Under the pieces are notes generated by a model, which saw only the letters and a program-made list of their open reading frames with translations, was not told the DNA's origin and did not search any database. From Massariosphaeria phaeospora (lineage: Eukaryota > Ascomycota > Dothideomycetes > Pleosporales): DNA of 64,000 nucleotides. Where the stretch lies: the NCBI GenBank assembly GCA_011032825.1, contig JAADJZ010000026.1, positions 558,001 through 622,000 on the forward strand, read 5' to 3'. Every line of letters begins with the position of its first letter. Within the stretch, counting starts at the first letter, position 1. Made by a program: the position numbers and the translations under genes. Of this stretch, positions 18,449 to 61,427 are shown piece by piece.

Positions 18449-19888
18449 ATGAAACTTCGACAGCTACCGATCGTAGGCTGTCTCGCAATGACCTACTTTT
18501 CTTCGGCCCGCGGTAACCCAAGAGGCGTAGTCGCACTTCCCATAAGAGTCATCGAGAACACAAGCACACCCATACATCGAAGGCAAGATGGAGTTCCCCT
18601 GAGAAGCATATGGACAGGCACGTACGTCGTCAATGGTACATGCGAACCCACTCCCTGTCGACCAGCCAAGCTTATCTGTCGTAGTTGGGGTCGGTGAGCC
18701 CGCCCAACCAATGGCTCTCGAACTTGACACTCTATGGGCCTACACATGGCTCAATCCGAACTGTACAACCACCGGCAGCGCTGAGCGAGACCTCTGCCGC
18801 AAAACACCTCAGTACGACCCCCGAAAGTCGTTGCATGCCATCGATCGCCCGGCCTGGACAAAGACAAGATTGGACTATGATCTTTATACTAGTATGGAAG
18901 GGTTGTTTTATACGGATACCTTGCGGGTTGGACCAGATATGGTTGAGAGATACAGCTTCATAGTTAACAGTGAGAGCAGGAACCTAGCCTTGGGAAGATT
19001 GGGGCTGGGCATGTGGAACATGTCCTCTCCCAACCTGCTGGAAAAGCTTTATGAGCAGTCCTTTATTGACAGCAAAGCTTTCAGTCTTGACATCCGCTCA
19101 GTGGACGAGCAAGGTACAGCACTACCTAGATACCACTCTGCCCGCCCAGATTTGGGTTACTGACGACCATTATACTAGGATCTCTTGTACTCGGCGGTCT
19201 CGACACAAAGAAATACAAATGCAAACTCCAGAAGATCCCACTCAACTCAGAGTTCCGCCTTGAGCTAACCGACATCGGCTTCTCTGCCCCGAACCAAGAT
19301 TACAAGCGCGTGCCCATGGATATCACCGTCACCATGGCACCCGATGCCGCCACTGTACTCAGCACGTTCCCAGAGTCCTTGTTTCACACCATCGGACAGA
19401 ACTTCCCGCGCACAACCCTCCCACAAAAAAGCCAGGGCCAGGTGTATTATACAATACCCTGTGACGACATCCCAGAAGGCACCCTCGATTTCACGTTCAT
19501 AAAAACCACCAGGATCTCTGTGCCCCTGGCTGACTTCGTGTTGTACGAGCCGAGCATCGGACAGTGCATACTCGGAATGGCGCCGATGGGTCAAAGCGGC
19601 GAGCTGTTTCATTTTGGGTTAGGGACGTTGGTGCTGCAATCGATATATCTGGTGGTCGATGTTGACAATAAAAATATGTGGATCGGACAGTCGGACAACT
19701 GTGGTTCGAGTGTGGTGCAGATGAAGAAGGGCGAGGATTCGAGTCTTCAGGTTGAGGGTTGCAGTTGCAAAGGGCCGAAATCGAAGCCGAAGCCCAAACC
19801 CAAACCCGGGGCAGCTTACTCTCTTTCCCCTCACGAGTTTCTTGGTGCAGGCTTATTCATCGTGGCGGTCTCCATGACCAATTTATAG
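18449..19888 (+). CDS. secreted pepsin-like (A1) protein with degraded catalytic motifs
   Basis: The best model has three exons (18449-18621, 18671-19113, 19179-19888) and 441 residues. A signal peptide is evident (MKLRQLPIVGCLAMTYFSSA), followed by a pro-region with a dibasic HRR. The fold resembles aspartic proteases: SVVVGVGEPAQPMALELDT at the first catalytic site, then LALGRLGLGMWN, GSLVLGGLDTKKY and a late CILGMAP block. But the first site reads DTLW rather than D-T/S-G-S (Asp near 77) and the second reads DAAT rather than D-T/S-G-T (Asp near 261). Both catalytic loops therefore lack the Gly. The C-terminus has a Lys-Pro repeat and a hydrophobic tail, suggesting wall or GPI attachment. 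The first intron (AAG acceptor) is the least certain part. Confidence 0.7.
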
Positions 19889-28135: not shown

Positions 28136-29367
28136 TTACTCCTGGCACTCGAGGACTTCAGTGTAGACTCTTTGCTTGAACGACATCTTGCGCCCGTCCA
28201 AATTATGGTTGATAATTACATGGCTCATGAACGGCACTCCGAGCGTTGCAGCATGCCCAGGCCTAGGGAGAAATGGCTTTACCATGGCGTAACTGTATGA
28301 TGGGGAGTTCCAAATCAGGATGTTGTCTTTCACTGGGATCTTGAATGTCGCTTGGCCAATCTTGAAGTCGAGAGTTTCAGGACCTTTAGCTTTGTTGGCC
28401 ACATACCATCTTCCATTGTGCGAAATCGGAAAGGGGTCCCACAATGCAAGGAATTCGTCGAAGGCCTCCTGGGGCAGATCGATAAACGGGGCGCCTGATA
28501 AAGATGCACATATCAGCGTAGTCTTAGTGGTTGTGCGGAGTAACGCACTCCACACTTACCTGAATCAACGAGCGTGCTTTTGTCTATCTTGATTGTTTGT
28601 AGCTCAAACCCTTCGATAAACCACCCCTTCTGTCCCGATAAGGGCACAGTCTCCCAAGAATCAGGCGTCACAGGTTCGCCATCTAGGATTCCGCCAATAG
28701 CAATAGAGCCGCCATTGTTTCCCTCATATCCCCGGTTGATTGCAAGTGTGAACTGTACCGGTAAACCCCAGGAACTGCAAAGTACCTGCCATACTGAGGA
28801 TATACCAGGATACCAGGACATGCCAAAGAGACCCACAGTCAAGCCATCACCTTCCCAGAAAAGCTCATCTATCAAAGCTATCAGGACGTCATTCACTCTT
28901 AATCCTCCTATTTCTGCAGTTTCTCTTATCCACTGTCCAGTCGCATGCTCTCCATCTCCATAACTCTCCTTGAAATATCCGAGTGCCTGGAAGCCTCCCT
29001 CAGATAAGCTAGGTGCTAAGCCCGGTCCTAGCTTACAATAATCCTGGCTTTGGGGGTGTTTACTTTTATCGTAACATTGGAAGTCTTCTTGAGCTATCCA
29101 CGTACTAGGGGTTCCAGAATCGAGATGGAGAATGTAGCTTCTCCCTTTTAGTATTATCTTGATGCCAAATCGTCCGAGCTGCTGTAGAAGTTGTTCTAAA
29201 ACAACAGGAGTATCATCCCGCTTGCCATAAGAATCGTTGGCTCCGCGGATCCTGATCAAATCAAAGACTAGAGGGCCGCTATCTTCAAAAACAGGGGCAG
29301 TATTGCCTAAAAGAACCAAGAATCCCACAAAGTAGAGAATGTAGACATTGATCTGGTGCAGTACCAT
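28136..29367 (-). CDS. secreted pepsin-like aspartic protease (family A1)
   Basis: Two exons on the minus strand (29367-28560 and 28494-28136; 65-nt intron GTAAGT...CAG) give 388 residues. A hydrophobic signal peptide (MVLHQINVYILYFVGFLVLL) and a pro-region ending in GKR near residue 50 precede the mature domain. Both catalytic motifs are present: LHLDSGTPSTW (Asp 83) and, restored across the splice, TLVDSGAPFIDLP (Asp 268). The flap region has YFKESYGDGEHATGQW, and the family's late strand reads TLGVPFMSHVIINHNLDG. It should be secreted or wall-associated and active at acid pH after removal of the pro-segment. It is only distantly like the degenerate A1 protein at 18449. It lies about 2 kb from the repeat-precursor gene, on the same strand; a functional link is speculation. 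Confidence 0.87.
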
Positions 29368-31423
29368 AGTCCAGAAGTGTCAGATCGGAAGAAACAAATA
29401 ATTGCTATAATGTGGAAAAAGACAGCTTGCTATCCCTAACATCACAATCAACTTTTCACAAGCTGAACAACGTGCCCAACAAACTAACAGTAGTAATTAC
29501 CGCACTCGCCCCACTCTAGTTGGTGGATGGGGTGAGTCCCGCGCCAAATCGTTGGTGGTTCTTTGCGTACCGCTCTTGACGGCCTGTTGCCGTGATTAGT
29601 GGATGGCTGCTAGATTGCTCCTGCAGGAAGGCGCTGTCGCCTAGGCAGTATCCAAGTGTTGGAACCTTGATGGACATTTTGCGTGTGTGTGTTAGGTGTG
29701 GGAGGAGGACGACAGAAGCGAAGATTTCATATTGTAGGAGCTCCACAAAATGGCCACCCATTCAGCTTATGCTGAAATCAAATAAGGCTGGCTATAAGCT
29801 GCTCGTGTAAACTTTCTCTGTAGGGCTCTTGAGCCCATGAAGTGGGGTTGAGGTTGAGGTTGGTGTTAGTTGCCCTGAGCTCGCTACCGTATTGGTGCTA
29901 TGCGCAATGCCTAGTCTACCCCCAAAACAGTAAAAGACATGGGGCAAAGGGGGCAAAGAGGCTGACTCTCGGGGAAGGGGCAGGCCGCTCTTCAACCGTA
30001 TCTTCGGTCTAAAATCTCTTTCAGCAGCGTAGGACAGCTAGTATCCCATGCAGATACCGGGCGCCCCTGCACCGATGATAAGTGCCGTCATATTGGCAGG
30101 TTCTGTGTTGTGTCGCGAACAATTGCATGGCTAGCAACGAAAGGCTAGTATCGAATAAGGCGGAGTAGATGCAGTTTCTTCTAGTGATTGTTATCGTCTT
30201 CGTCGTACTGCAGAGGACGCCGAACCAGTGGTCTTCAGGGAGAGAGTTCCCCGAGCTCTCTCCATACTCTGTCTCTCCCTGTACTCTGTAGGGTTTCCCG
30301 CGAGAGCTAAGCTTTATTATTAACTTGTAGGTATAGGCCTAGTGTACTAAGATTGATTGAATAGAATAGATGCGGGGTATCGGAGACTGGCTCAACGAGA
30401 CGGAGCCGCAATGCAATATCGATCAGGACGAACCGCACAGTAAAGGGGGCCGCCTCGCGCATTTACTGGCGGGTACAAGCATTACAGCAAATTGCCTTCA
30501 ACCAAATCCCTCACACTCATGTCGCTCCGCAGGCTCAGATCGTTCCGCAGACTCAGATCCATGACCAGGATCTATCGACGAGCAACGATGGCTTGGGCGC
30601 TGCTACGAACAAAAGGGCCGCCGAAGGTGATGATGAAGAAGAGGAGGATGATGAACGTCGTTGATCGGCGCGTTAGGGCGAAGGTTACGGTTTCGTTTCC
30701 GCCTATTGCCGATGAGACAGCAATTGGATATGATGACAAGGATGATGAAGAGGACGATGCAGATGAAGAGGGAGAGGAAGAGGATGCTGGAGAGGATGAG
30801 TCTGAAGACGGACCATCCGACAAACTACCCGTGGGTTGCAGGATCAGGAAATGGGATAAGCCACTGTCGACGAAAAAGTGGGATGAAGCGATGGTGGAAG
30901 TTGCCATATCTCGGGAGTCCCCTGCCCACCTCTTCAAGTGATACGAGCTACGTGTATGGAATGTTGCTGTGCAACTAACGGAGTGACAACAAGATGACAG
31001 CTCAGCTGGCGTATGAGCTAATCGGCGCATCATCCGCATCAGAGCCGGTGATCTCTGTAAGAGCCCACTGTTTGGCGGCAACGATTGCGAGCCACTGGTA
31101 CACGTCCGACTTCTTCGGCATCTCCCCATCGCTACTGGCTCCGTTTCCAAGATACGAGGATACTATGTCTTCACATTGTTGTTACCACTCCAGAGTCACA
31201 TTGCATTGGTGTAGCCATATTATTGTCGCTTCGCTGGTTAAGGCCGAGAAAACGTACACTGATACCCCATGCGTGTAGCTACCAGACCTCCCCTTGATAC
31301 ACTTGCACCTGATTTTGCCGTTCCAAGAAAATAGAGAAGGGGGAATACAGCAGAGAAGTCTACGCACATCGAACGGGAATAAAGAAAAAGGCAGCTCCCC
31401 ATGAAGGGAACACTACAATGAAA
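29368..31423. other. gene-poor accessory stretch with a coding-like fragment
   Basis: This 2-kb gap contains no gene I can defend. An 8-bp stem (GGAGAGAG / CTCTCTCC) with a 9-base loop lies at 30239-30263, just before an LTR-like or promoter-like AT-rich stretch. A stop-free + frame without an ATG runs 30365-30664 and is listed separately. Around 30600-30830 the DNA is rich in GAT/GAA triplets and reads as acidic repeats in several + frames, and as serine runs on the other strand. Confidence 0.4.
30365..30664 (+). pseudogene. coding-like fragment with acidic C-terminus, identity unknown
   Basis: An open + frame of 99 codons lacks an in-frame ATG. Its residue usage looks protein-like: TVKGAASRIYWRVQ, LQQIAFNQIPHTHV, then PQTQIHDQDLS and NKRAAEGDDEEEEDDERR before TGA. 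A charged C-terminal tail of this type is common in nuclear or transposon-derived proteins, but I do not recognise the family. It may be a terminal exon, a broken gene or a transposon fragment. The absence of a start and of visible partner exons argues for a fragment. Confidence 0.3.
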
Positions 31424-31765
31424 TTACTCCTTGCCCCACGTAACAACCGTCGTCGGCTTGCCAAGCTTGAACTCGTCCTTCGACTGCTCCCTCTTTCCCC
31501 AGGTGATCTCGGTCTTGGGCTTTCCAAGCTTGAACTCGTCCTTGGGCTTCTGCTCGCCACGCTTGCCCCAGATAATCTCAGTTGACGGCGGGGTGAGCTC
31601 AATGTCGTCCTTTGGTGTCTCGTCACGCCTTCCCCAGGTCACGACTGTTGTTGGTGGTCCTAGCTGGATATCGTTGGGTGGAGTGGTAGTGTCTCGCTTT
31701 CCCCATACGATAACCGTGGAGGGCGGGCCGAGTTGGATGTCATCTGGAGGGCTGGTGGTTGTGTC
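31424..31765 (-). repeat. five tandem coding repeats, 63-72 bp each
   Basis: The DNA encodes five consecutive copies of 24, 23, 22, 23 and 21 codons, each ending in a Trp-Gly-basic-basic junction except the last (Trp-Gly-Lys-Glu). The first two copies are most alike (DTTT start, IQLGPP centre), and so are the last two (KDEFKLGKP centre). This suggests stepwise local duplication. Confidence 0.85.
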
Positions 31766-32007
31766 CCTCTTCTCTTTGCCCCAGTGGGTATTTGAGTCGG
31801 GCGGCGTCAGACCAAACGTGGGTGGGAGGACTAGCGTCTGTGCCTGTTGACAGTTAGAACGGATTCAGGAATCAAGTACCGCAAAGTTCAACTTGAAGAC
31901 GGAATGGTAGTATACGAATAAGTGGTGCTTACTTCAGGCTCCGCGATAGGCAGACCGTTGGCGAGCAGAGCGCCAGCAGCAATCACTGAGACCAGACTGT
32001 AGTGCAT
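31424..32007 (-). CDS. secreted Kex2-site repeat precursor (KEP / RiPP-like)
   Basis: Two exons on the minus strand (32007-31933 and 31843-31424; 89-nt intron GTAAGC...CAG) give 164 residues. Exon 1 is a signal peptide (MHYSLVSVIAAGALLANG). Exon 2 encodes a spacer ending WGKEKR, then imperfect tandem repeats: residues 52-75, 76-98, 99-120, 121-143 and 144-164. Each repeat has an acidic or proline-rich start, a centre such as DIQLGPP or DEFKLGKP, a beta-type stretch such as STVIV or TTVVT, and ends W-G-K-R or W-G-R-R. The last copy ends WGKE-stop. Dibasic KR/RR are Kex2 cleavage sites, so the secretory pathway should release several near-identical 17-22-residue peptides. This is the design of fungal KEP proteins, dikaritin-type RiPP precursors and alpha-pheromones. 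No Cys is present. The product is unknown. Confidence 0.85.
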
Positions 32008-34939
32008 AACTGCTTTCTAGTAACTCTTAGTATCGAAGTGGGTGTTGTGTTTAGGTGTCAAGGTAGGCTTTCCACTAGAGTCAGGATGTAGTAAAGTAAG
32101 TTCAGAACGGCAGACCAGGACAGGGCAGGCGGCCTCATATACTGCTGAGCGACAAAGTGTCACGGGTTGCCACCAGCCCAAACACGGCCGAGAACAGATT
32201 CTGCTAAAGAGCGTGAGTGTAACTAGATCCGCCGTATAACCAATCTGGATAAAGCATTTCCCAGCATCCGTCATAACCTGCGGACTTTGCGACAGAGCCT
32301 GGTCATTTTCGCGAGCCCCATATTGCATGGTGTGAAAGGCGCCTTAGTGGGGTGATAGAGCACGATTGAACCTAGCTGAGATAGCTGATCCTCATGCACT
32401 GTCTGAGCTGGGTGTGGGTGAGAGCCCATGTCGTGCGATTGATCTAAACAATGTAGAGAAGGTCGACCCCCGGCACCCTGCAGCGAAGCCGTTGAAAAAT
32501 GGGGAGCAACGGCTCGCTCGGCTCCTCGTATTGGTATCGGGTTGGGCTAGAATGTGATATGGGCCTGACGACTCTATCAGTGCGCCGCCAAGGATGTCGA
32601 GAGGGACAACCGGCAGGGTGCGCAAAGAATCGGCTTGGTGTATCGATGCTTGATAAGAGCGGGGAGCCACGGCATATGCGGCACTGTTGTGGATCATCGA
32701 GCATACAGTACCGAGACTAATGTGTACAGTAGCAGCGTGGATCCCTGATGGCTAGAACGTTGAAGGCCTAGACCTGTCGACTGTGAGACCAGGTGAAGAA
32801 GGTACAATCGCAGACGCAGATGCGGGAGAAAATTATCCCCTCTGGGTGACCTGTCGGCATGATAGATGGAGATCTGGGGAAGGAGATCAACCACCTGGAG
32901 CTATTGGCGCTAGATAGCGGTTGATAATCTCCTGCTCGTTTGATATGATCTTCATATCCCGGGGAGTTATTTTCGGCAGCGGTCACCGAATCGGTAACGC
33001 CAAGTGCATAGAACACTATGTGATGAATGGAACACGGGGTTCCTCCAAGGTGGTCAAGGAGCCGTGCCATGCGAGGGCCTAGAAGACGGAAACTTGAAGT
33101 TTTTGGGCTTAAAATAACCATTTGCTGTATTGTCATTATGCGGACCACGATGAAAGAAGAGATACCCCGAAATAAACATGAGACAGTGATGAGGACAGAA
33201 TGAAAATTCAATTTAACAAGAAAATGTGGTTACATTGCGACCCTTCGAGCCGGGCAACGAACAACTGGCAAAATGGCGAAGCGGTCGGACTGGCCGCACA
33301 TCATAATCAAACTCCCGGACACTCGTTCTCTGGTAGGCTAGAGACAAGAGTGGGAGACTAGAGTTGAGACGATTCTGAAGCGAGGCGGATAGATTAAGGT
33401 GCAGTGCGGTTAATCTAGATAAACAGAGTTGAAATGAGCTTGGCGGCGCCTAGGTCAGCTCACAACAACGCTATCGCGAGAGCGGCAGTCGGTCGTTATG
33501 TCAAGGTTTCTATACAACTCACCCATTTCTGTCGGACCAAAGGGGTTGTGCGGCGTTGAACAAAGGTTTTTCAAGTGTGCTCTCAGGTGCAGGTTTTAAT
33601 ACACACACGTGACCGCCGGGGAGAAGCAACAACTCGCGCTTGGGATTAGATGAAATTCCACCAAGATCAGCTTTCGGTTCCACCGCAAAAGGGACATACC
33701 TTTTGCCATTGAGGAGTCAGAATGAGATGACTGAAAGAGTTTCCTTCCATGACCAGTAAGCCTGATGGGGCGAAGTGCCATTATGATTGATAGCGCCATA
33801 AACACGCCCACCACATGCCCATCATCAGTGCGTACCACCGACGCCCAACTCTTCTGCTCCAAACGGGAACATCCTTTGGAGTCATCCATCGACTGTCCTC
33901 GTGCTCTTCTCGTACTGCGTATGCTGGTCAAGCCATCCAAGCCTTCTCTAGTCGGGTTCATAGCCTCTTAGCGCAATCTCATCTGACATGTTTTCTACTC
34001 CAGAGTGCGAGTAGTTCTTTCCAGCATCAATGCCCTCGATACCAATATTCTGCTGGCCTACTAGTGGTGCACCAAATCTACAATGATGCCCTGCACCTTC
34101 TAGACTTGGGATAGGACGACAGCATGAGCGCCTGTAAGCTAGATGGTCTCTCTCAGTATTTACGTTCAGTTACTCCAAGTGCTCACGATTCTCGATGACG
34201 GATCCCTTGCAGAACAAGCGTACATCTTGGGCGAGATGCCGAAGCTGCTGAACACAACGGGAACCCGCCCCGTCTTGTACACACGTGACAATGTCTAGGA
34301 GCCCGAGCCCGAGCCCGTGGCGTCTAGGCAAATCACCGTGTGAGAGCCGACCACCTGAAATGGCGGACGAGCGGGCACGATGGCCTTTTGACGACAGATT
34401 GGTGTGGCGTCCTGTCAACGGCGAGCTCGCCACGAAGAAGGTTTTTGATGAACTCAGCATACTCTCAGTGGAGACGAACTTAGAACTTGGCCATATCTGG
34501 TATGGTAGGTAGTAGACGATGCGCTCTGGCAGCTGAAGAGCGGAGTATGCGTTGCTTGGAGAATCGGTTTCGACGAAGAAGGAAGGTCTATAATAGCAAT
34601 AAAGCACTCGAGATGATACGCGAAAAGCAAGGCTAGGCCAGGCTAGAAATAGAAAGAAACCCGTGGTTGACTCACGAGAAAAACCCCGACTTTTTGCGTT
34701 TGCGGGCCGATCTCGATAACATGTTGAACGGCGGTGGTGAAGCTGGGCGGATGTGAAGGCCAGAGCTTTGCTCGATAGGAGCAGTCTGCCGCCAAGCCCA
34801 TAAGGGTTCCGCCCCGCTCCGCTGCCGCCAAGCTGCTGGTAAGCGACAACGGCAACCTCTTACCTCGCAATATCTTGACGCGACTTCTCGAGTGTTTTCT
34901 CCCGCCTACGACACGACGGACGGGCCTCGACGTCCTTCC
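32008..34939. other. long gene-poor gap, no confident gene
   Basis: Nearly 3 kb without a defensible gene. Short frames on both strands at 32366-33211 lack conserved motifs. Between 33596 and 34512 several overlapping frames occur. One + frame from 34142 reads QVLTILDDGSLAEQAYILGE and looks coding-like for about 55 codons before a stop, but I found no coherent splice model or family. This could be a decayed gene. The last 200-300 bases should hold the PPR-gene promoter. Confidence 0.4.
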
Positions 34940-37030
34940 ATGCTGCAGACCGGAAAACATGTCTCGAGAATAATGCAAACATTATGGTCCCGGGCAACAC
35001 GCAACCCGGGAACCTGTCGATGCATCTCCTCTGTCTCCAGCCCCGCAACCATCGCGCGCCGCGCCGGTGTCGTCCGTCACCATGGCCCCCGGGCTTGCGC
35101 GACTTCGAGCTCGACCCTTCGCCCCGCCGCTATGTTCATCGCAGGGCTTACCACCGGCAGGAGGTGCCATGACAAACGCAAGGAGCAGTGGGACGCCGCC
35201 GTTGCAATCTTGGGTGAAGAACTGCACAGGCCTCCATCTCAGGGCACGCAGTCACAGCCAGAGGATTTGTTCGACGACGAAAGTCTAAGCCACCCGAGTC
35301 CATTGGCGCCTGAGAACTTCTTCATCGAGAGCGCCGACTGGGACTCCATATTGCGGGCAGTGGGAATGGAATTGGTTGAAGGCGACGTATTCCAGGAGCG
35401 CCAGTCCAAGATCCAACAGGACTATGTGTCCGAGGATCTCTGGGACTTGATACAGATCGACTCCAGGTTTCCCGGAGTGCAGGCGCTGACTTGGCCTGCC
35501 AATACTGGCCGCGACCTGGTTCCCCATCATCTTCCCCCACAGTCACTGTGGTCTCCGGACCACATGCGGTGGACAGCCTTACGCAAGCGGCAGACGCGGA
35601 AAAAACTGGCCATACAGGAACTGGCTATCGGCAGGCTTATCCATTCGCTACTTCAGTGCGCAAGGGTGTCGCGTCTCCCACCCGATTTTTCCGTGTCTAT
35701 ATCGCCGGAGTTACGTAGGCTTGCCTCGTTAGGGCAGTATGAGATAAACATTTTCAGGCGAGAGATTGCCCATGTGATTGAGAAGCTTCAAGACCTCCCT
35801 TCAGACAATCCATCTTCCGACAATCTCAACGGAGTCAGAGCCTCTTTCGAAGGCATCGCGGTTCCACAGTACTTCCAAGACAGTGACGGCGACTTCTATC
35901 AGATCAGTCGACAGATGAATACTGCGATAAAACACATCTTTTCGGGCACAGCAAATGAGATGAAGGATGAGCAATATTGGCAGTCCGGACAAGGAGCGCT
36001 AGCGGTAGTCAAGTTGTGCCATAATCTCCTTGTGTCTTCGGCTGCCCCAGACGTGCAGACTTTCAATATACTCATCTCCGGCTTCAAGAGGTGGAGGCGT
36101 GCAGACATGGTTCGCGAAGTTATCAAAGAATTCTATGTTTGCAAAATCCGCCCTAACGAGATCACTTGCGTTGCCATACTCGATCATTATATACAGAACA
36201 ACCTCCCGAGCGAATTCAGCCGTTTCGTTGCTAAAATGCGTGGCATGGACAATGCTCTTATGTTGGCTCGTCCAGATATCAACATCAACCAAGCCGGTGG
36301 AGATCGCCTCGTCCGCGTCGCCAAGGACAAGGTCTACCAAAAGATCCACCCAACCCCTCTCGTATACAATACAATCATGCTTGGGGTCCTTAGATTCGCA
36401 GGGTTTGAGCGAGCCTTGGAAATCTACTACGAAATGAAAGAGGATGGATGGGGTCTTGACGCGCTCGCGCTGACGCATTTCCTAGTCGACTGTGTCCACC
36501 GAATTGACTGGAACGGCGGTCTTTTCGTATGGCAAGAGATCAACACTATCAAGCGCAAAGCAAAATTTTCACATATGATGAAGGCTTACGCGCAAATGCT
36601 AAGCTTATGCTCCGTCGCGGGGAAAACAGTGGCTTTCAACCAAATCCTCAACGAAGTCGCGAGGCGCGGGTTAGACCGGAAAGCAATTATCGAGTCAGCA
36701 ATGCAAACGACGCGTATGGTGCAGAAGAAGAACGATGACATAGGTCCCGCTTGGACCGCTGACAACGTTCTCATCGCTACTGAATATATGGAAGACGCTA
36801 CTCCACGCCGGCAAAAAGACGATCCTTTCGAAGAAAGTTTCCCTTCCTACCCGGACTCAACCGTTAAGCCTCGTGCCTCGGTGGCATCCACATCATCAGA
36901 TCCTGAGACGGCATGGTCGTCCTGGGTGGCGCATGAGCTGGGGGAAGATGTTCCTGATGAGCCCGAGTCAGACAACAAACTTGAGAACGCCGCAGTTCTA
37001 CCGAACTCTACCAGGCCGCCGACATCATAA
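34940..37030 (+). CDS. mitochondrial pentatricopeptide-repeat (PPR) protein
   Basis: A single exon gives 696 residues from the first in-frame ATG at 34940. The N-terminus (MLQTGKHVSRIMQTLWSRAT, continuing Arg/Ser/Ala-rich) fits a mitochondrial presequence. The middle and C-terminal parts contain helical-pair repeats of PPR type. Examples are APDVQTFNILISGFKRWRRA, IRPNEITCVAILDHYIQNNL, and HPTPLVYNTIMLGVLRFAGF, which runs on into ERALEIYYEMKEDGW. The C-terminus is acidic and disordered. Fungal PPR proteins bind organellar RNAs and support maturation or translation of specific mitochondrial transcripts; the target RNA cannot be read from the sequence. It is convergent with the UCS gene. Upstream open frame to 34892 has no ATG. 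Confidence 0.8.
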   Translation: MLQTGKHVSRIMQTLWSRATRNPGTCRCISSVSSPATIARRAGVVRHHGPRACATSSSTLRPAAMFIAGLTTGRRCHDKRKEQWDAAVAILGEELHRPPSQGTQSQPEDLFDDESLSHPSPLAPENFFIESADWDSILRAVGMELVEGDVFQERQSKIQQDYVSEDLWDLIQIDSRFPGVQALTWPANTGRDLVPHHLPPQSLWSPDHMRWTALRKRQTRKKLAIQELAIGRLIHSLLQCARVSRLPPDFSVSISPELRRLASLGQYEINIFRREIAHVIEKLQDLPSDNPSSDNLNGVRASFEGIAVPQYFQDSDGDFYQISRQMNTAIKHIFSGTANEMKDEQYWQSGQGALAVVKLCHNLLVSSAAPDVQTFNILISGFKRWRRADMVREVIKEFYVCKIRPNEITCVAILDHYIQNNLPSEFSRFVAKMRGMDNALMLARPDININQAGGDRLVRVAKDKVYQKIHPTPLVYNTIMLGVLRFAGFERALEIYYEMKEDGWGLDALALTHFLVDCVHRIDWNGGLFVWQEINTIKRKAKFSHMMKAYAQMLSLCSVAGKTVAFNQILNEVARRGLDRKAIIESAMQTTRMVQKKNDDIGPAWTADNVLIATEYMEDATPRRQKDDPFEESFPSYPDSTVKPRASVASTSSDPETAWSSWVAHELGEDVPDEPESDNKLENAAVLPNSTRPPTS

Positions 37031-46442: not shown

Positions 46443-48478
46443 GGAACACCATAAACGTTCTACTAGCAATGAGGCAATAGAGCCAGCCACAATCAATATT
46501 ATCATAAGAATTTTTAGCAGAGTACTATATTGATACTTGCGATTAATTTGCGCTACTTATATCTATCTAGAAACTTGACGCTGCGGCCGCGACGCGTTAG
46601 GATAGCTGGGACAGCAGATACGCTCTCTAAGGCCTCCGCAGCATCTCTAGTATCAACGCTACGTTTGTAACGCTTTTTGCTCTGTAGAGATAGCTGCAAA
46701 GCTTTTCTTTTACTTTTTTAAAAAAATTGTAGAGCTTTTGTAGCGTCGCGAGCTTCTTTCTAGCGAGCTCGCTCTGCTGCCTTTTCTGCTTTCTTTCTCT
46801 CTCTAGCTACTTTAGCTGCCTTCCGCGCTATACGCTTCTCCTTTGCAATTTTCTTCTTGTATAGCTTAGCTGCTTTCTTTAGCTCTGCTATCTCTGCTTT
46901 TTAAAGCTGCTGCTTTTTTTTTTCTTGCTCTCTAACAGATTAACGAACACGTGCTTTCTTTATTTTTCTTAGTAGCTAGAAAACTGCTCTACTATGATAT
47001 TTCTAGCGCTGTTAGAGATCTAAAGCTTTGCTTTTTTTTTTACGCTTCTCTTTAGTAGATAGCGCTTGCTTAATTCTATTTATCTTATGCTTAAGTAGCT
47101 TATTTTGAACAGATAGGTAGTAAAGCGATTGGCGAAGCTTTTGTGTATCTTAACTACTTTGATTCTTTACTACTAATCGTATAAGCTTATCTATTTTTCT
47201 TTAGTTATAATTGCTAAGCTCTAATAAAAAGCTATTGCCTAATTCTTTATCTTGCGTAAACCTATTAAGAATAGACTTAGAATTAGGTAGTAATATGCCT
47301 GTAGCTCTAAAAGAGCTAAAAATAGTTAATTCCTTAAAAAAAGCTTTCTACGCATTCTAGAATAGAAGAAAGAAGTTGCTTTTAGTAATAGAAGCTAGGT
47401 CCTAGCTTCTATGAAAGTATTCTAATAGCTCTACTAAGTAGGCTGTTAATAGAAGCTTAAACATTACTACATTAAGTAGCTAAAGCGTATAAGTCAAATA
47501 AAAAAGTAGAATAGCAAAAAAAATCTTGTTTTAATTATAGTAGTTGATAAAATCTATAGTAATATAGAATTCGTAGCTATCTAGAATTAGAAGTTAATAG
47601 AATCGTTAGGTTTTTTTTTTTGTACAGCGATTAAACACTTGCTTAAGCTAGGCAAGTTCAATATCGTTGTTCGTCTAGCTAGAAAGTAATAAAGTAATAA
47701 AAACTAAGTGTTCTTTTGCCTAAATATCGTTTACCTAGCTTAATTAAATGCTTTTGTTAGCAGCTTTATAGATAAAGCTTAGAAGCAAAGCAGTTCTATT
47801 AGCGCATATACATACTAGAAGTGTAATCTATGCGCAGCTTCTATTCTAAAGCAATGCTCTAACTTTTTTTTTTCTACATTCGTTAGCTAAATATTTTTTT
47901 TAATCTGCTTACAATACTAATTATAAAGCTTTTTTTATCTATATTGTACGTATAACGAGAATTTATCTAATATTAATCAATCTTGCTATGTAAAAGCTAA
48001 AAATAGAAGCAATATTTGTTTTTTAAATTAGCTTTGTAGCGATTGCTGTTTATGCTAACTATTTATTGTAATATAAAATAAATGCTGTGCTAGTTGATAA
48101 AGCGCGTAACTTAGCTTTTACTAACTAGCTTTTAGGCTATCGTTAATGCGAAATTTCGTATTATCTCTTTTGTAGAAAGTATATGTTTTTTTAATAATTC
48201 TTTAATATACTATACAAGCTTCTGCTTTTGTTGTAAGCTAAGTTTCTGTTAGTTAAAGTTTTTCGAAGTTCTAAAGCGTGTTAGGCTTTAGTGTCTTCGG
48301 CTTAAAGTAGAGCGCATAATACTATGTTTAGTAGCAATTTCTGTATATAAGAAATTTTCTTCTAGTTCTTGCAATTTGATTTTTTTAATCGCAGCTTGTA
48401 TTGAGTTTATATTAGTAGAGTTGTTGCGTGTTAAAAACAATAGAGTTTGTTGTATTTTAGTGTTTCGCGTGCATTACG

Positions 48479-48516
48479 CGAATTCGTGCATTACGCGTAC
48501 GAACACGTTACACAAG
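48479..48516 (-). repeat. right terminal inverted repeat of the DNA transposon
   Basis: This is the inverted partner of the left end. It has T or A at several positions where the left end keeps C or G. A duplicated inner motif (GCGTAATGCACG in reverse) begins just inside, around 48465-48478. Confidence 0.68.
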
Positions 48517-48530
48517 CTATTACAGTACAC

Positions 48531-49859
48531 AAGCTACTTTTTCTAAAATTAGCGCGCGCAAAAATAAAGCTGTAGAGCTACATACAAATTGTATTATTAT
48601 AAAATTTTCTAGTGTAGTACTATATAGAGCTTTGCGTAGCTTTTGTACTACTTAAACTTTTGTAGTACTTTAATTTAGCAGCTGCGCGTAGTAGTTTTAG
48701 GTAAAAGCAATAGCAATAGATAAACGGCACTACGGTTTGAGTATATAGCACTATAGTTTTCAAAGTACGCGTGCAGCTTTTAGTGCTGTTTATCTTAGCA
48801 CAGCTGAAAATTAGCCAACGAACTTCTAAACTTAAAATGCTTTAGCTGCACTAATTTTGCGCTACTGCAAAAGCTCTAGCTATAGCTAGCGCTTTACTTA
48901 TTCGAAGTCTTCGCCAAGCAGCGCTGCTAATCTGCTAGTTTATTCAAATTAGCATAAATTTAGCTTAATATGTTGCTATTTTTAAGTAGTTAGTTTACAT
49001 TTGCTTAGCAACTTTTACTTTCTCTTTAACTTCTGCACTACACTACATTTTTGTAATATTATTTGAAATATTTTTTGCATTTACTATTTTATGTAGCGCT
49101 ATTAATTTTAGCTAAATCTAATGTAGCGTTTTTGTGCTATTGCTTAGTAAAATATTTATTTTCTAAAACTTTAATATGCGAAGCTACGACTAGCTTACTT
49201 TCTCGCCTATTTAACGCGCTTACGAGAAAGCGTTAGCTTATTTAGCTTATACTTCGACTTAAAGCTAGATTTAACTAGTAGTAAGCGTTTACGACTACTA
49301 CTAGCGCTAAAAGTAGTACTATTAATATATGCTTCTTTTATTTACTTTGTTTTTTTCTTATTTCTTTTAGCGTTGCTCTAAGGTTTTTATTAAAAAGTGC
49401 GCTTTTTTTAAGCTGCTAACTTCGCTTAACTTTGCTTTTAACAATACGCTTAGTAGATTGTCTTGTAGTAGTTACTTTTTTAGTAACTTTAACTTTTTTG
49501 TTAGCTTAGGTAGCTTAAGTAGTAGTAACCTAAGTTGCGCTAGAAGTTGCAGTAACTTAAAAAGCACGTTAATAAGTAATTTTAATGCTAATTAGCTCGT
49601 AGAGATTACGTAGCAGCTTTTTGCCTTTAGTTTTATTCTTTTTAGAGTATTCTTTGCTTAAAGTAATTACTATCGAATCTTGCAAAATAACTAGCGAAAG
49701 TGCTTTTTCTAGTTAAACTAAGTAAAACTACTAATGTTGCTCTATCTAATTCGCTTTTAAAATCTACTCTAATAAAGTAGTTTAATAGAGTAGCGCGTGT
49801 AGTACGTGTTTGCAAAGCAATTTGTACTTAATCTTAAACGTTTCTAAATAGCAATTAGT
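48531..49859. other. AT-rich RIP-type sequence, element unidentified
   Basis: About 1.3 kb of low-GC sequence with frequent stops in all frames. TA-rich words and runs of T dominate. It is probably a decayed repeat, but I could not assign a family or ends. The LTR element that follows inserted into this sequence. Confidence 0.4.
49855..49859 (+). repeat. target-site duplication TTAGT (left)
   Basis: Five bases directly before the left LTR, identical to the five bases after the right LTR at 55824-55828. A 5-bp duplication is typical of Ty3/Gypsy integration. Confidence 0.85.
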
Positions 49860-50147
49860 TGTAATGAGCTAAAAGCCCTATAGATTGCCTTAGTCGTAGA
49901 ACTTTAGTAGCTATTAACGCTGTACGTAACAGCTTCGACGATACCTAGAAAAGCCTCGCTAGTTTCTAGTTAACGAAGGCCCTGCGGTATTGAGTTTTTA
50001 CATAGCTTCTAAAAGCGCTCCGCAGGTAATTTGAAAGCTAACTAACTATAAAGTATATAGAGCTCTCTTGTCCGCGCTGTAGATAAACTCTATTAAATTT
50101 ATTACATTCTTTATCTAGAACCTGCTTTCCTAGGCGATTTTCTTTTA
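49860..50147 (+). repeat. left LTR (288 bp)
   Basis: Aligned by eye to the right LTR (55536-55823) without gaps. About 20 positions differ and all are transitions. It starts TGTAAT and ends in TTTTA, the terminal CA having become TA. Confidence 0.93.
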
Positions 50148-51545
50148 TTTAAATTTAATTAATCTCTACGCAGTGAAAGTCGTGAGATTTTTAAGAAGTA
50201 CAATACTTTTAGAAGTTAAAAGCAACCTCTAAGAAACCTCAAAACGCAGCGAAAAAAGTTTTTAAAACTAAATTGCTACGATAGACAGTACCTAGGATGA
50301 GTATATTTAGATGCTAGTTGTAGAAGCCCGCAGGCTAGAAAGCGAAGGCCAAAGCAGCGAAGCAATTAAAAAAGCTCTACAAGAGCTAATAAACAACGAC
50401 AAACTCGATGTAGAAACTCGAAAGATTCGTTTTAATGCGGCAGAAGCTACATATACGAAGATATTCGTTGCAAAACTCGTAATAAGACCGCCTAGAAGAG
50501 TAACAAACAATTAGCTACTAGCAACGAAGCTAGTCCTCGCAGGACTTTTAAATTCTAAGCAGCTAGTTAATAACAAGAGTGCGAGAGTTCAAGCGCTTAT
50601 CGAAATACTGCGAAATTAGGTTTAAATTCTTTAGAAAGAAAAAAGAGCTGCGCTAGCAACACTGCTAACTTCTCTTAGTATTTCAAAAGCTTCTACGCTA
50701 ATTACAAAGCACAACAAAATGCTTAACCTAGCCTAGTTCGACAAAACAAGGTCAAACTATAGACAGTTTAAAGTTTAGGTAGAGAACAAGATGCTTAATA
50801 ACAAGAACTTAATTAAGAACTTATGCGGCTACATCTACAACTGCTTAATAAAGCAAGCAGCTACTACTAAACTCGCCTAGTATTAGAAACACTATAACGG
50901 AACGGCAAAGAAGTTTTGAGAGTACTTTAATAGGCACTACTAAGACTACATGCAAGCGTAGAAAGCGCTTAACCAACTCTTCGCTCTTAGGCAGAAAAAA
51001 ATGTTCTTTTAAAAGTACAATAAAGAATTCATGCGTCTTGCGTACGACGCAAAAATAACAGGCAACGTAGCTACATTAAAGAACTAGTACAAAGCAAAGC
51101 TTCGCGCTAATCTACAGAATAAAATAGTTAGCGTTATCGTTCTCTTAGCATAGCAACTTTAGAACCTAATAGAACAGGTTACCTAGATTAAAGAAAACCT
51201 AAACCGCGCGAAAGCAAACAACTAGTAGCAAATAGTACTAAATTAATTAATAAGCAACACGGAAGCTATAGACTAAAAGCTAGCAACTAAAGCTGCTACC
51301 TAGGCAGTCCGCGCGGCTACTAACAACAAGAAGAAAAAGCGAGCTAAATAGGCAAACAACGCAGAAATAACGAAACAACAAAAGAATTACCTTTGCTTTT
51401 AATGTAGTTTAGCAACTTACATGTCTAATAAATGTAAGCTCGTAGCTCCAAAAAAGCCCGCTACAACTTAAAAAGCAACTTTTGAACTAGTTAAGACGAT
51501 AGCAAAGGTTAAGAAAGTCTTTGAGTTTGAGGACTTAGAAAACTA
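50148..51545 (+). pseudogene. gag relic of the chromovirus
   Basis: A short stretch is still open at 50311-50514 (VVEARRLESEGQSSEAIKKA). After that the frame is interrupted by many stops. Near 51393-51435 a CX2CX4HX4C zinc knuckle is recognisable, with the first spacer Gln now a stop and the His codon now Tyr. Gag would form the particle core in an intact element. Confidence 0.75.
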
Positions 51546-51599
51546 AACACTTCTAACTAAAAGCGCGGTTAAGAGTAGTAGAAAAAGAACACGGTTTCT

Positions 51600-54500
51600 T
51601 TATTAGATGATTTTCTAAAGTTCCGCTAGCGCTAGCCGAACGGGAAACTACTTACAGTACATGCAATTATTAATTAATCTATTTTCGCTTTAGCAATGCT
51701 CGACTCTAGGTGCACTACTTATAGTTTTGTTAGCAAAAAGTTTTGTAAAAAGAACTATTTTCTACGTATTTTAATAAAAGAAAAGCTTGTAGTAGGCATT
51801 AGTAAACAAGTTGTTAAAGTTACAGAAACCGCTTAGTTTACAATAGACCTAAACGAGCACGAACAAACAGTTTAAGCGTACGTTATAACTAAAAATAACG
51901 AATACGATATTATTCTAAGGCGCCTATAGATAAACGGAAGCTAGGTAACGCTAGCTCTAGCGAAAAAATCGATTTTCATTTATTCAACTAGAACACGCGT
52001 GCGGAGCTAGGAAGAAAAAAAGCCTAAACAGAAGCTCTAGCAAGTGTCTGCAACCGCGTTCAAAATAATAATGCAGCAGTTTAAAAAAAAGAACTCTAGC
52101 GTTAAGATTTTCGCCGCGTTTATAGCGGACATTTAAAAAGCTTTCTAGACTAAAGTAGTAGTCGACCTACGCCTAACGCTGCTTAACTAGATAAAAAATT
52201 AGTATACAGCGTTTATGCAGTCTAAGGCTAACAAATTATCTTCTTACTAGAGCCTAATAAACTACGGCATCAAACTAATTAAAAAGAACAAAAAGAAAGC
52301 AGAGGTTTTATAGAAACTTTTGTATAACATGTTTAAAAACAAACTGTTAGTCTTGCAAAAGCAGCTTACTGCGCATTTAGATTGCGGGTTTATTAGAGTA
52401 AGTTGCTTCTAGGCCGGAGCGCTAGTGTTGTTTGCAAAGAAACTTAGTAGAGAGCTACGCTTTTGCGTAGACTATCGAGCGCTTAACGCTATTACAAAAA
52501 AGAACTAATACTCGCTGCCTTTGATTTACGAGACTCTGAATTAGATTAGCTAGGCTAAATAGTTTACTAAGCTAGACGTTATCTAGGCTTTTCACAAAGT
52601 CTAAATTGCTAAAGAAAACAAGTAGAAAACAGCTTTCCGTACAAGATTTAAATTGTACAAATAAATAGTTTGCTTATTTAGTTTTGCTAACGCTCTAAGT
52701 ACGTTCTAGCAGTTTATTAACTACACTTTGCGTAATTACATTAACGTTAACGCTTTTGCATACTTAGATAATGTACTTATCTACTCTAAAGGTTTTTAAA
52801 AGAACTACTAGCGACGTGTTAAAAAAGTTGTTAACAAGTTAAAAAAAGCGGAGTTACAACTCGATATTAAGAAATGCGAGTTTAAAGTAACTAAAACTAA
52901 ATACTTTAGTTTTATTATCGAGGTAGGCAAGGGAATTAGCATGGATCTAGAAAAAGTCCGCGCAATTTTTGAATAAAAAGCTCTAGCCTTAGTTAAAAGA
53001 GTACAAAGCTTTGTTAGTTTTGCAAACTTTTACTAGCAGTTTATTCGCGCCTTTTCTGCAATTGTTTTTCTACTAACAGAGTTAACAGAAAAAGGCGTTG
53101 AATTCTGTTAGAGGCTTAAACAACAAGAAGCGTTTGACACGCTTAAGAAAGAGTTCATATCTAGGCCGTTATTAGCCTATTTTGACCTCAATTTAGAGAC
53201 CGCTATTAAAGCGGACGCTTTGGAAATAGCTACTAAAAAAGCGCTTTTTTAAAAAGCAAAGAACAACTTGTAGCGAGCAGTAGCTTACTACTTTGCTAAA
53301 ATGTTACTTGCAAAGTCTAACTACACTATTTACAACAAAGAATTATTAGTAGTAATTAAATGCATTACTAAATAAAAAGCAGAGCTTAAAGCAGTGCCGA
53401 AGATTACAGTTTACACTAATTACAAAAACTTTTTGTACTTTACTACAGCGAGGTTACTAACAAAGCAACATGTTCGCTAGGCGAACATTTTTTTTAAACA
53501 CAACCTAGAGTTTGTGTACTACCTTAGAGCAGCTAATAAAAAAGCAAACGCTTTTTTACAAAAAAAGCAGAATCTCTTTTAAGACTAGAACAATGTTTAG
53601 CTAAAAAGCTGTAAATTTTAACTTCTCAAACTAACTAGTGTGTCAAACGAGAATAACATTACAGAAAAAACTTTAGGCGTAATCCGCGCGTTCCTGCTCT
53701 ATAGCACTTCAATTCCAACGCCAAATGTACTTGCTAGTAAGCTCGATGCTTTTTACAAAGCAAATGTAGCAGAAGCTCTAAAGCAAAACGTTTTTTTTTA
53801 GATCAAAAGTGCAAGCTCTAAAGAGCAGAATGCTGCGAGTTTTAAACAGAATGCTGCTAAATAGAAAAAAAATGCTAGCACAAAGAACAATTCTAAGAAT
53901 AATGCAAAAAAGCTGTTTTTAAATAAACTTTGAAATAAAAGAGTTTAAAAAGACGATTTGTACTAGGAAGCCTTAGAGGCCGTAAAAAAAAGCTAAACTA
54001 AAGAAAGTACCCGTAGGAAGTTTCTTTTAGGCCTTTAATTAAAAGCGTCTTTAGCAAATTGCGCTGTTAAAAACGACGCGCTTTTTTATTAAAAAAAGAA
54101 ATAGGTGCCGAAAACGTATCAACTACGCACTAGATTAATTTTTGAAGCCTACGACCCGCCTATCGCAAGGCACTCTAGCAAAAAGAACACCTATAATATT
54201 CTCAAAAGGAATTTCTTCTAGCTAGGAATAAGCTCGGACATTTGATAGTACATTGCCAACTGCGATGCATGTGAACAAGCGAAACTATAGCAGAAAATAA
54301 AAAGTAGTTTTCTTTGCTCGCTCTTTGTTTTGGACAGAATCTAAAAAGAACTTTTTATAGACTTTATTACTAACCTGCCGAAAAGCAAGAAGTGCACGAA
54401 TCTACTAGTTATTACGAACCAATTGAGCAAGAATATAATCTTGATTCTTATAGCGAAAATTAACGCAGCAACTGTAGCAAAGGTATTTATTAAAAAAGTA

Positions 54501-55490
54501 GTAGCTTACTACTAGCTTCTTAACGCTATTGTCTTTAACTAAGAAGCACAATTTGTAAGTAAATTCTAGAAAACGCTTTGCAAAGAGCTTGAAATCGTAA
54601 GGCAGCTATTTACAGCTTTCCACTCAGAAACTAACAAAGCTACAAAAAAAGCAAATTTAACAATTAAAACTGTCTTAAGGCTGTTTGTGAATTGGAACTA
54701 AAAGAACTAGGCGCAGCTATGCTCTATTGTACAAATCGCAATCTAAGAACAAGAAACAGTGTCGACAAAAGTAAGCTCTTTCTTTCTCTAGCATAGTTAC
54801 GAAATAGACTTAATTTAGCTTCGAGCAGAGAAAAGAGCGAATACGCTTTACTAGGCAACCTTGGACTCTTAGCAAAGCGCAGCAGAAATAGCTAAAAAGA
54901 TAAAGAAAGTTATTAACTTCGCGCAAGCTGCTATGGCGGAGGCCCAACAAGAGCAGAAAAAACAAGCAAATTAACATAAAAAAGAAGCGCTGCTGCTTTG
55001 AGTAGAAGATAAAGTGTAGTTGCAATACAGAAAACACATCTCTAATAGGCGCCTAAGCAAGAAACTAGACTAGAAAAATAGCAAATATATAGTTTTACAA
55101 GTTAAGTCTTTAGGCAACGTAGTTTTAAACACACTTTCTAAGATAAATCTAACATTTCCAATAGATAAGCTTAGACTTGCAGCAGACAATTCTTTAGAAA
55201 GCTAGACAGTGTTTAATTAGCGCCTAAGAAGCGTTACCGTAGAAAGCGAGTAGAAATAGCTAGTCAAGCGCATTACGAGTAAGTGCTAGAAAAAAGTTAA
55301 AAGAAGCTAGAAGCTAGAATATCAAGTTAAATAAACTAGCTATAACTAGCCTACATAGAAACTAGCGCTAGAACTCGAAGACACAGAAGCTTTATCTACC
55401 TAGCAAGAATTTTCAGCGGCTTACTAGAACGCCGATGGAAAATTGCCAAAAAACTTTCAAAACGGCACGCTTTTAAAAAGGACGCTAGGA
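51600..55490 (+). pseudogene. pol relic: protease, RT, RNase H, integrase, chromodomain
   Basis: Domains in order: a retropepsin site near 51702 (LDSR, originally DSG); RT from about 52430, with LRFCVDYRALNAIT, FTKLDV and YLDN at 52761-52772; RNase H around 53200-53450; the integrase zinc-binding CDAC at 54261-54272; and a chromodomain near 55258-55400 (LEYQVK-stop-TSYN, then LALELEDTEAL). Stops replace Gln, Trp and Arg codons throughout, matching RIP on both strands. Without the stops, the residues fit fungal chromoviruses closely. Confidence 0.88.
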
Positions 55491-55535
55491 CGCTAGCGAA
55501 GTAAGTAAATTGCTACAGATTAGAGAAAGAGCTTA

Positions 55536-55823
55536 TGTAATAAGCTAAAAGCTCTATAAATTGCCTTAGTCGTAGAACTTTAGTAGCTATTAACGCTGTA
55601 CGTAACAGCTTCGACGATACTCAAAAAAGCCTTGCTAGTTTCTAATTAACGAAGGCCTTGCAGTATTGAGTTTTTACATAGCCTCCAAAAGCGCTTCGCA
55701 GGTAATTCAAAAGCTAACTAACTATAAAGTATATAGAGCTTTTTTGTCCGCGCTGTAGATAAACTCTATCGAATTCATTACATTCTTTATCTAGAACCTG
55801 CTTTCCTAGGCGATTTTCTTTCA
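55536..55823 (+). repeat. right LTR (288 bp)
   Basis: Same length as the left LTR, begins TGTAAT and ends CA. It is followed at once by TTAGT (55824-55828), the right target-site duplication. Confidence 0.93.
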
Positions 55824-61187: not shown

Positions 61188-61427
61188 TTAGTGTGCAATA
61201 ATTTTTTTAACTTTAAATTCGTTTTTTTTTTTAGTTTTATAGCGAAAGGTTCGCTGAAGTAGCGTTTGTAGGTTAGCTAGTTTTAACAAGAATATGTAAA
61301 ATACTAGGTGTATCTTTGCGTCTTTTAGTAGGTTTAATTTGTAATTAACTAAGCTTCGTTGTTTTAATATTAAAAATAGTTTGACTTTGACGTTGTCTAG
61401 ACTCTTGCTTAGTTGTTTTGTGCGCAA
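61188..61427 (-). pseudogene. integrase C-terminus (GPY/F) with start of chromodomain
   Basis: This 79-codon open segment covers the integrase GPY/F module, including LDNVKVKLFLILKQR and INYKL-type strands. It ends inside the chromodomain at NEFKVKKIIAH. The next codons read a stop followed by VANN and then KKYLVKW, so the chromodomain continues past one inactivating stop. Confidence 0.8.

What the first reader, a model, noticed from the sequence alone, without database searches (positions are those of the whole stretch)
31424..32007. Unrecognised secreted Kex2-site repeat precursor (KEP/RiPP-like)
Seen in the sequence: a signal peptide, then a spacer and five imperfect repeats, with junctions WGKR, WGRR or KEKR. 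Known: fungal KEP proteins, dikaritin precursors and alpha-pheromones share this design and are cut after KR/RR by Kex2. Inference: the gene releases several related 17-22-residue peptides. The repeat (acidic/Pro start, LGPP or LGKP centre, TVVT/TVIV, WG end) lacks the Cys of most ascomycete alpha-pheromones and is unlike the dikaritin cores I know.
Basis: partly seen in the sequence, partly recalled or inferred. Interest (0 to 1): 0.88.

Follow-up and report, generated by a model that had tools for sequence, protein, structure and literature searches.

The report
Conserved fungal secreted peptide precursor
This fungal gene makes a protein built to be secreted and cut into several short, similar tryptophan-ending peptides; relatives sit beside the same neighbouring gene in at least two other moulds of the order, which hints at a shared but unexplained extracellular signal.

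Summary
On the minus strand, 32007-31424, an intact two-exon gene encodes 164 aa: a signal-peptide-like start, then repeats joined by KEKR, WGKR or WGRR. Repeat pairs give pN/pS 0.34, and 31 database proteins (E <= 3.3e-11) resemble it. Named ones come from Alternaria, Bipolaris, Stemphylium, Ascochyta and Boeremia and are "hypothetical" or "uncharacterized".

It is a KEX2-processed repeat protein (KEP), a published class. The RiPP/dikaritin part is not supported: no UstYa match on this contig, no tailoring gene among scanned neighbours. The gene lacks both published dothideomycete alpha-pheromone cores.

What I add: one locus in its genome, and the same PPR neighbour in Alternaria dauci and Ascochyta clinopodiicola by consecutive locus tags, although this fungus probably belongs to another suborder. 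Against: no named Massarineae relative was found. Best guess: linear 19-22-residue signalling peptides, receptor unknown. The genome has Ste2, yet no alpha-pheromone pattern that I tried led to a precursor; a mating role stays open.

The parts
31933..32007 (-). Exon 1: start codon, signal-peptide-like segment and short pro-segment, MHYSLVSVIAAGALLANGLPIAEPE
   Evidence: aligned with the N-termini of homologues such as P0002, P0005, P0009. No signal-peptide predictor was available; the reading rests on the hydrophobic core and small residues.
31844..31932 (-). 89-nt phase-0 intron, GTAAGC...CTAACTGTCAACAG
   Evidence: seven homologue models (P0001, P0008, P0011, P0020, P0021, P0023, P0027) carry an insert near this junction that begins with V (as GTN would read) and ends with Q, or K in P0023 (as CAG/AAG would), while P0002/P0003 and P0009/P0010 lack it: looks like an unspliced in-frame intron (inference)
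31424..31843 (-). Exon 2: repeat region and stop codon
31766..31819 (-).
   Evidence: 165 of 20,000 shuffles score as high
31694..31765 (-). Unit 1 DTTTSPPDDIQLGPPSTVIVWG-KR
31625..31693 (-). Unit 2 DTTTPPNDIQLGPPTTVVTWG-RR
31559..31624 (-). Unit 3 DETPKDDIELTPPSTEIIWG-KR
31490..31558 (-). Unit 4 GEQKPKDEFKLGKPKTEITWG-KR
31427..31489 (-). Unit 5 EQSKDEFKLGKPTTVVTWGKE, C-terminal, no Kex2 site after it
34757..37027 (+). Stop-to-stop frame of a divergently transcribed pentatricopeptide-repeat (PPR) gene, the shared neighbour
   Evidence: PF13041; homologues whose locus tags are consecutive with those of the KEP homologue in Alternaria dauci and Ascochyta clinopodiicola

Best explanation
The gene is a KEX2-processed repeat protein. 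The product enters the secretory pathway; Kex2 cuts after KR/RR at the five junctions, Kex1 removes terminal K/R, and linear 19-22-residue peptides (family consensus roughly D-[TD]-I-x-L-G-[KP]-P-[ST]-T-x-[VI]-x-W-[GS]) are released outside the cell. The most likely use is an extracellular signal, self-sensing or colony communication, inherited vertically, rather than a clustered, oxidatively cyclised RiPP or a host-specific toxin. Shown here: gene anatomy, repeats, constraint on the frame, a family of relatives, one locus in the genome, a shared neighbour in two named species, and one Kex2-type P-domain match. Inferred: secretion, cleavage, trimming, signalling.
For: Anatomy and constraint. 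Family: 14 proteins and 32, all 14 among the 32; 31 of 32 at E <= 3.3e-11. Among 32 proteins (31 database, 1 query; P0032 left out), 105 of 106 fragments after the first cut contain Trp and 93 of 106 are 15-30 aa long; P at -6 from Trp in 122 of 153 Trp-anchored windows, V or I at -2 in 138 of 153. Kex2-type P domain once in the genome, two DPPIV_N (Ste13-type) matches. One locus: other matches only at E 0.04 and 1.3. Shared neighbour: consecutive locus tags with the PPR gene in Alternaria dauci and Ascochyta clinopodiicola, and, compared by eye, identical longest-contig lengths for 5 of 32 KEP proteins, these two included. No UstYa on the contig. AlphaFold gives no confident fold for exon 2 (mean pLDDT 45), as expected of a precursor that is cut up. 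Ste13-type XA/XP starts in 11 of 106 fragments, with EAEA runs in P0017, P0018 and P0031.
Against: No transcript, peptide or secretion evidence; signal peptide not scored by a predictor. Spread: the named relatives are five genera only, none of Massarineae, Plenodomus, Pyrenophora or Exserohilum, though PPR proteins of those are in the same database; unannotated small genes or the word-based search could explain it, but so could patchy presence, which would weaken a general role. Units within one precursor differ (query mean identity 0.52 over 14 positions; range 0.33-0.87 over 26 proteins), more than expected of ligands for one strict receptor. Four Bipolaris rows (P0008, P0009, P0010, P0015) have junctions KKAR, KKVR, KKSR or KAR in place of KR/RR; unless KK is cut, only part of those chains would be released. 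The low pLDDT may come from a shallow alignment. Weak Pfam matches in some homologues (PF21506 in 6 of 22, best 1.8e-4; PF01052 in 5 of 22, best 5.2e-3; PF02494 in 2 of 22, best 1.2e-4; none in the query) are unexplained. Adjacency elsewhere was judged by locus tags and contig lengths, not by reading DNA.
Confidence: 0.57

Rival explanations
1. It is an alpha-type sexual pheromone precursor of this fungus: peptides trimmed by Kex2, Kex1 and Ste13 act on Ste2 of the mating partner.
For: Same precursor plan; EAEA Ste13-type spacers in three members and XA/XP starts in 11 of 106 fragments; Ste2 in the genome, two exon-level matches over profile positions 1-279 of 280 without stops; no hit to the published Pleosporales core PYG[L/M]P[I/V]G and no plausible precursor under PYGxPxG[K/R], YGxPxGKR or C..PGQ.C patterns (contexts read).
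Against: PMC6339444 gives PYG[L/M]P[I/V]G for 13 Pleosporales including Alternaria brassicicola; the genus Alternaria also has this family, so it would be a second one there. None of the 32 proteins holds PYG, and none of the query's units starts with XA or XP. Units differ within a precursor. The patterns I tried could miss a divergent or intron-split pheromone.
Confidence: 0.12
2. It is a dikaritin-type RiPP precursor: cores are cross-linked by UstYa-type oxidases encoded elsewhere.
For: Same precursor plan; conserved Trp near the end of each core; UstYa genes exist in the genome. The contig probably ends about 34 kb from the gene on one side, so genes beyond that end could not be seen.
Against: No UstYa on contig C19 among 26 matches; no tailoring gene among the 26 frames scanned; PPR neighbour shared with other species; no Tyr in the query's five units, unlike the EDYXI core of ustiloxins and phomopsins (PMC6339444). 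Tyr is not a strict test: DUF3328-linked KEP types with an HH motif are described (PMC7329392).
Confidence: 0.07
3. The released peptides act on other organisms: effector-like or antimicrobial peptides used on plants or competitors.
For: PMC6339444 reports KEPs conserved in pathogens and KEP genes regulated during plant infection; PMC9769878 (abstract) found no phenotype for kep knockouts in Coprinopsis cinerea and suggests interaction with the biotic environment. The named homologues are from genera known (recalled) for plant-associated species, and named relatives were found in only five genera.
Against: One locus with a shared neighbour across suborders points to old vertical descent; fragments are mostly acidic, median net charge -3, positive in 12 of 106, and almost free of Cys (3 of 106), unlike cationic lytic or Cys-rich peptides.
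Confidence: 0.2
4. The units are structural: secreted beta-prone peptides that coat hyphae or conidia, like the Kex2-cut repellents of Ustilago maydis (Rep1).
For: Alternating T-V-V-T-W-like segment in each unit; PMC7329392 (passage) describes Rep1 peptides as water-repellent and Kex2-released; two short strands in units 4 and 5 of the model.
Against: Many charged residues in each unit; model confidence is low throughout; no sequence relation to Rep1 was tested.
Confidence: 0.1

Closest known systems
KEX2-processed repeat proteins (KEPs), PMC6339444 and PMC7329392
   Same: Signal-peptide-like start, at least three similar units separated by KR/RR, short precursor; trimmed unit length inside the 9-24 aa class of PMC6339444.
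   Different: No function or named motif for this family in the text that I read; the motifs listed in PMC6339444 (such as YVW[G/A][G/S]) do not match it exactly. Supplementary tables and figures were not available.
KEP type G-9 of PMC7329392 (48 KEPs in 48 strains, 14 genera, none within 15 genes of DUF3328)
   Same: Alternaria, Bipolaris, Stemphylium and Ascochyta, 4 of the 5 named genera here, are in its genus list; no DUF3328 nearby.
   Different: Its list also holds genera outside this family's named ones (Venturia, Pestalotiopsis, Phialocephala); its logo is a figure and is not held, so identity could not be tested; it could as well be the Pleosporales alpha-pheromone.
Pleosporales alpha-pheromone precursors (core PYG[L/M]P[I/V]G)
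   Same: Kex2-cut repeats, core without Cys, same order; some family members have an EAEA Ste13-type spacer.
   Different: PYG absent from all 32 proteins examined.
Dikaritin precursors (ustiloxin, phomopsin, asperipin-2a)
   Same: Signal peptide plus Kex2-cut repeats.
   Different: No UstYa on the contig, no Tyr in the query's five units, no tailoring gene among scanned neighbours.

Membership tests
KEX2-processed repeat protein (KEP) | Secretory signal peptide | tested here: inconclusive
   Hydrophobic N-terminus similar across the family; no predictor such as SignalP available
KEX2-processed repeat protein (KEP) | At least four fragments after cutting at KR/RR, and at least three similar ones (PMC6339444 pipeline) | tested here: met
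   Six fragments, five plainly similar, plus a degenerate unit in the first; the paper's own FIMO step was not run
KEX2-processed repeat protein (KEP) | Repeats cover at least 15% of the protein (PMC6339444) | tested here: met
   Units 1-5 cover residues 52-164 of 164
KEX2-processed repeat protein (KEP) | Cleavage by Kex2 in vivo | not testable with these tools
   Only a Kex2-type P domain in the genome was shown
Dikaritin (UstYa-dependent RiPP) | UstYa/DUF3328 gene near the precursor (within 15 genes in PMC7329392) | tested here: not met
   26 PF11807 matches in the genome, none on C19; on one side the contig probably ends before 15 genes
Dikaritin (ustiloxin/phomopsin kind) | Tyr-containing core such as EDYXI | tested here: not met
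   No Tyr in units 1-5
Pleosporales alpha-pheromone | PYG[L/M]P[I/V]G core | tested here: not met
   No PYG in any of 32 proteins
Cys-type ascomycete alpha-pheromone | Two conserved Cys in the core | tested here: not met
   No Cys in the query's units
Alpha-pheromone (any) | Ste13 XA/XP spacer after the Kex2 site | tested here: not met
   None of the query's five fragments starts with XA or XP; 11 of 106 fragments in the family do
C-terminally amidated peptide (G-K-R signal) | PHM/PAM enzyme in the genome | tested here: inconclusive
   PF03712 not found, but the search rang in none of the 14 controls; 45 of 152 Trp are followed by Ser, not Gly, which argues against a need for Gly

The most novel reading that the evidence does not exclude
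The gene encodes a non-classical peptide hormone of Pleosporales, kept beside the same PPR gene since before the suborders split, sensed either by an unknown receptor or, in lineages without a recognisable alpha-pheromone such as this fungus, by Ste2 itself.
Probability: 0.23. Interest if true: 0.7.

Novelty: new member of a known kind. Interest (0 to 1): 0.42.

Why it matters
KEPs are numerous and mostly without known function. This family offers a tractable case: one locus in the genome tested, a neighbour shared across what are probably two suborders, a sharply conserved Trp-ending core, and predicted masses that can be looked for in culture filtrate. If it is a hormone, it would give Pleosporales, Alternaria and Bipolaris among them, a peptide signal beyond the known mating pheromones.

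Tried and rejected
Alpha-pheromone of the known kinds: four genome-wide patterns gave 0, 1, 7 and 2 hits; the reversed-pattern controls gave 1, 1, 9 and 3. All ten contexts were read: the frames are broken by stops nearby, except that L041 is open downstream and there reads like the start of a polyketide synthase (my recognition, not searched). None shows repeats with KR.

Dikaritin cluster: rejected; 26 of the 69 frames of 130 aa or more, plus the spliced protein, were scanned, and 7 of the 26 had no Pfam match. Amidated peptide: no usable result. Folded repeat protein: no confident fold, so no fold search was run. Solved structures: none at E <= 0.1. NCBIfam: five proteins scanned, none for the query, one match below its cut-off in P0005. 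Literature: two searches of six strings each (family motifs and locus tags) returned 0 papers; four topic searches found 14, 3, 984 and 62 papers, of which 14, 3, 15 and 12 were listed; no listed title names this family, and three papers were opened. Supplements were not available.

Opposite-strand ORF 31422-31850: pN/pS 0.50 in what I reckon to be its frame, so selection alone does not exclude it; no relatives of it were sought. I prefer the sense frame because its relatives are found and it carries the signal-like start, intron and Kex2 junctions.

Because of the limited named spread I lowered the best explanation from 0.60 to 0.57 and the novel case from 0.25 to 0.23, and raised the effector rival from 0.17 to 0.20.

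Full report
What is there. The window lies in a 42.08-Mb, 51-contig genome. On its minus strand, 32007-31424, is an intact two-exon gene. Exon 1 gives MHYSLVSVIAAGALLANGLPIAEPE; an 89-nt intron follows (GTAAGC...CAG, with CTAAC before the acceptor); exon 2 gives the repeats and a stop. The spliced protein has 164 residues. Cutting after KR/RR yields an N-terminal piece of 51 residues and five fragments of 24, 23, 22, 23 and 21 residues. The N-terminal piece ends with TFGLTPPDSNTHWGKEKR, a degenerate sixth unit: 165 of 20,000 shuffles of its first 12 modelled residues match the other units as well, and homologues have a full unit there.

More than chance. W[GS][KR][RE] occurs six times in exon 2 against a mean of 0.012 in 20,000 residue shuffles. 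Among the five units, pS is 0.48-0.89 while pN is 0.10-0.35; pooled pN/pS is 0.34. Four other frames give 1.2-2.1; one antisense frame gives 0.50. By my reckoning that frame is the one of the plus-strand ORF 31422-31850 and shares its third positions with the sense frame, so the contrast with it is modest. Variable columns by codon position are 7, 6 and 13 of 15 each. These are ten dependent pairs of 15 codons: they show direction, not precise strength.

Family. A search with the protein gave 14 relatives, a second with an alignment of 12 sequences gave 32, including all 14 (only the 7997 candidates sharing most words were scored). 31 of 32 have E <= 3.3e-11; P0032 (5.4e-3) is doubtful and was left out of counts. 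Some rows are near-copies (P0001-P0003) or partial. In 153 Trp-anchored windows from 32 proteins, P at -6 occurs 122 times, G at -8 119, L at -9 118, V or I at -2 138, and G or S follows Trp in 133 of 152 (a few windows are not true units). Of 106 predicted fragments, 105 hold Trp, 3 hold Cys, 93 are 15-30 aa long, the median net charge is -3 with 12 positive, and 11 begin with XA/XP, among them EAEA runs in P0017, P0018 and P0031. Unit identity within a precursor ranges from 0.33 to 0.87 in 26 proteins with three or more units: 0.79 and 0.86 in the two Ascochyta rows, 0.44 and 0.51 in the two named Alternaria rows, 0.52 here. Four Bipolaris rows have junctions such as KKAR, KKVR or KKSR in place of KR/RR.

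Limit of the spread. No named Massarineae, Plenodomus, Pyrenophora or Exserohilum protein is among the 32, although PPR proteins of these are in the same database. Small genes are often not annotated and the search needs shared words, so this is not proof of absence, but it does not support a family present throughout the order.

Intron. The regular expression caught 13 rows. I read seven as an extra stretch near the exon junction that starts with V and ends with Q (P0001, P0008, P0011, P0020, P0021, P0027) or K (P0023); three are ambiguous (P0017, P0018, P0024) and three are spurious (P0026, P0029, P0030). Close relatives P0002/P0003 and P0009/P0010 lack the stretch. GTN and CAG would read so if an in-frame intron had been left in, which would place an intron at the same position in relatives. 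This is inference from protein models.

Where it sits. One locus was found (other matches only at E 0.04 and 1.3). I scanned 26 of the 69 frames of at least 130 aa, plus the spliced protein. Pfam names an RTP1/TANGO6-like protein, two aspartyl protease genes, a DNA ligase, a kinase, an Rcd1-like gene, a ribosomal L1-like exon, a MIX23 gene, a DUF1604 protein, an alpha/beta hydrolase, a PPR gene, a UNC45-like gene and LRR proteins; 7 of the 26 frames and the gene itself have no match. Short or intron-split genes may be missed, and the contig probably ends about 2 kb beyond the window, so a full 15-gene radius was not seen on that side. The PPR protein's best outside relative is Trematosphaeria pertusa at 54% identity, then Lentithecium fluviatile, both Massarineae, so the fungus is probably an unlisted member of that suborder of Pleosporales. 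In Alternaria dauci the KEP and PPR locus tags are ACET3X_009567 and ACET3X_009566; in Ascochyta clinopodiicola N0V95_008765 and N0V95_008764. Both are Pleosporineae, in two families. Compared by eye, 5 of 32 KEP proteins share their longest-contig length with one of the 120 listed PPR relatives (164 found): the two above, Bipolaris maydis, and two unnamed contigs (268,880 and 50,265 bases). The gene pair therefore seems older than the split of the suborders.

Machinery. One Kex2-type P domain, two DPPIV_N matches, Ste2 over profile positions 1-279 of 280 in two exon-level matches. UstYa: 26 exon-level matches, none on this contig. PHM: not found, but the controls were silent too, so nothing follows.

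Mechanism. A secreted precursor cut by Kex2 and trimmed by Kex1 into linear Trp-ending peptides fits what was seen. AlphaFold finds no confident fold in exon 2 (mean pLDDT 45, 22 sequences), in keeping with a precursor but not proof. A general extracellular signal is my choice because there is one locus here, the neighbour is shared, and no biosynthetic cluster shows. That step is inference.

Known context. I read the Results section, the pipeline section and the section on new peptides of PMC6339444 besides passages and the outline; section 6 and passages of PMC7329392; and the abstract and outline of PMC9769878. KEPs are an established class. PMC6339444 gives PYG[L/M]P[I/V]G as the Pleosporales alpha-pheromone core; this family lacks it. 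Type G-9 of PMC7329392 overlaps this family in 4 of its 5 named genera and in the absence of DUF3328, but its logo is not held. The roles of Kex1 and Ste13 are taken from PMC6339444. KEP knockouts in Coprinopsis cinerea had no detectable phenotype (PMC9769878 abstract), a caution for any claim of function.

Open. In this genome no known alpha-pheromone pattern turned up in a plausible precursor (with contexts in 47, 51, 57) although Ste2 is present. A divergent pheromone is the simplest reading; that this gene serves Ste2 cannot be excluded.

Noticed in passing
window 47000-64000: AT-rich block (GC 26-36% per kb) with strong RIP-type indices over 46500-64000: TA/AT 2.03 and (CA+TG)/(AC+GT) 0.67, against 0.73 and 1.18 in the left 46 kb. 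The window's own PPR protein P0033 is on a contig of 624,206 bases, so the window probably ends about 2 kb before the contig end.
   Followed up: partly
window 28139-29379 (-) and 18603-19885 (+): Two aspartyl protease genes (PF00026), the first about 2 kb from the KEP gene; whether either processes secreted peptides was not tested.
   Followed up: no
P0032 (database protein, unnamed contig): Doubtful distant relative (E 5.4e-3) with a stretch NSVGINPPTYTVIWGKEKR and an EAEAEAEP run; suggests that the Trp-ending Kex2 unit may be wider than this family.
   Followed up: no
G000:C30:256062-256950: Ste2 receptor present while no known alpha-pheromone pattern led to a precursor in the genome.
   Followed up: partly
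the 22 members of alignment A2: Weak Pfam matches to PF21506 (6 of 22 members), PF01052 (5 of 22) and PF02494 (2 of 22), none in the window's exon 2; the tool does not say which members match.
   Followed up: no
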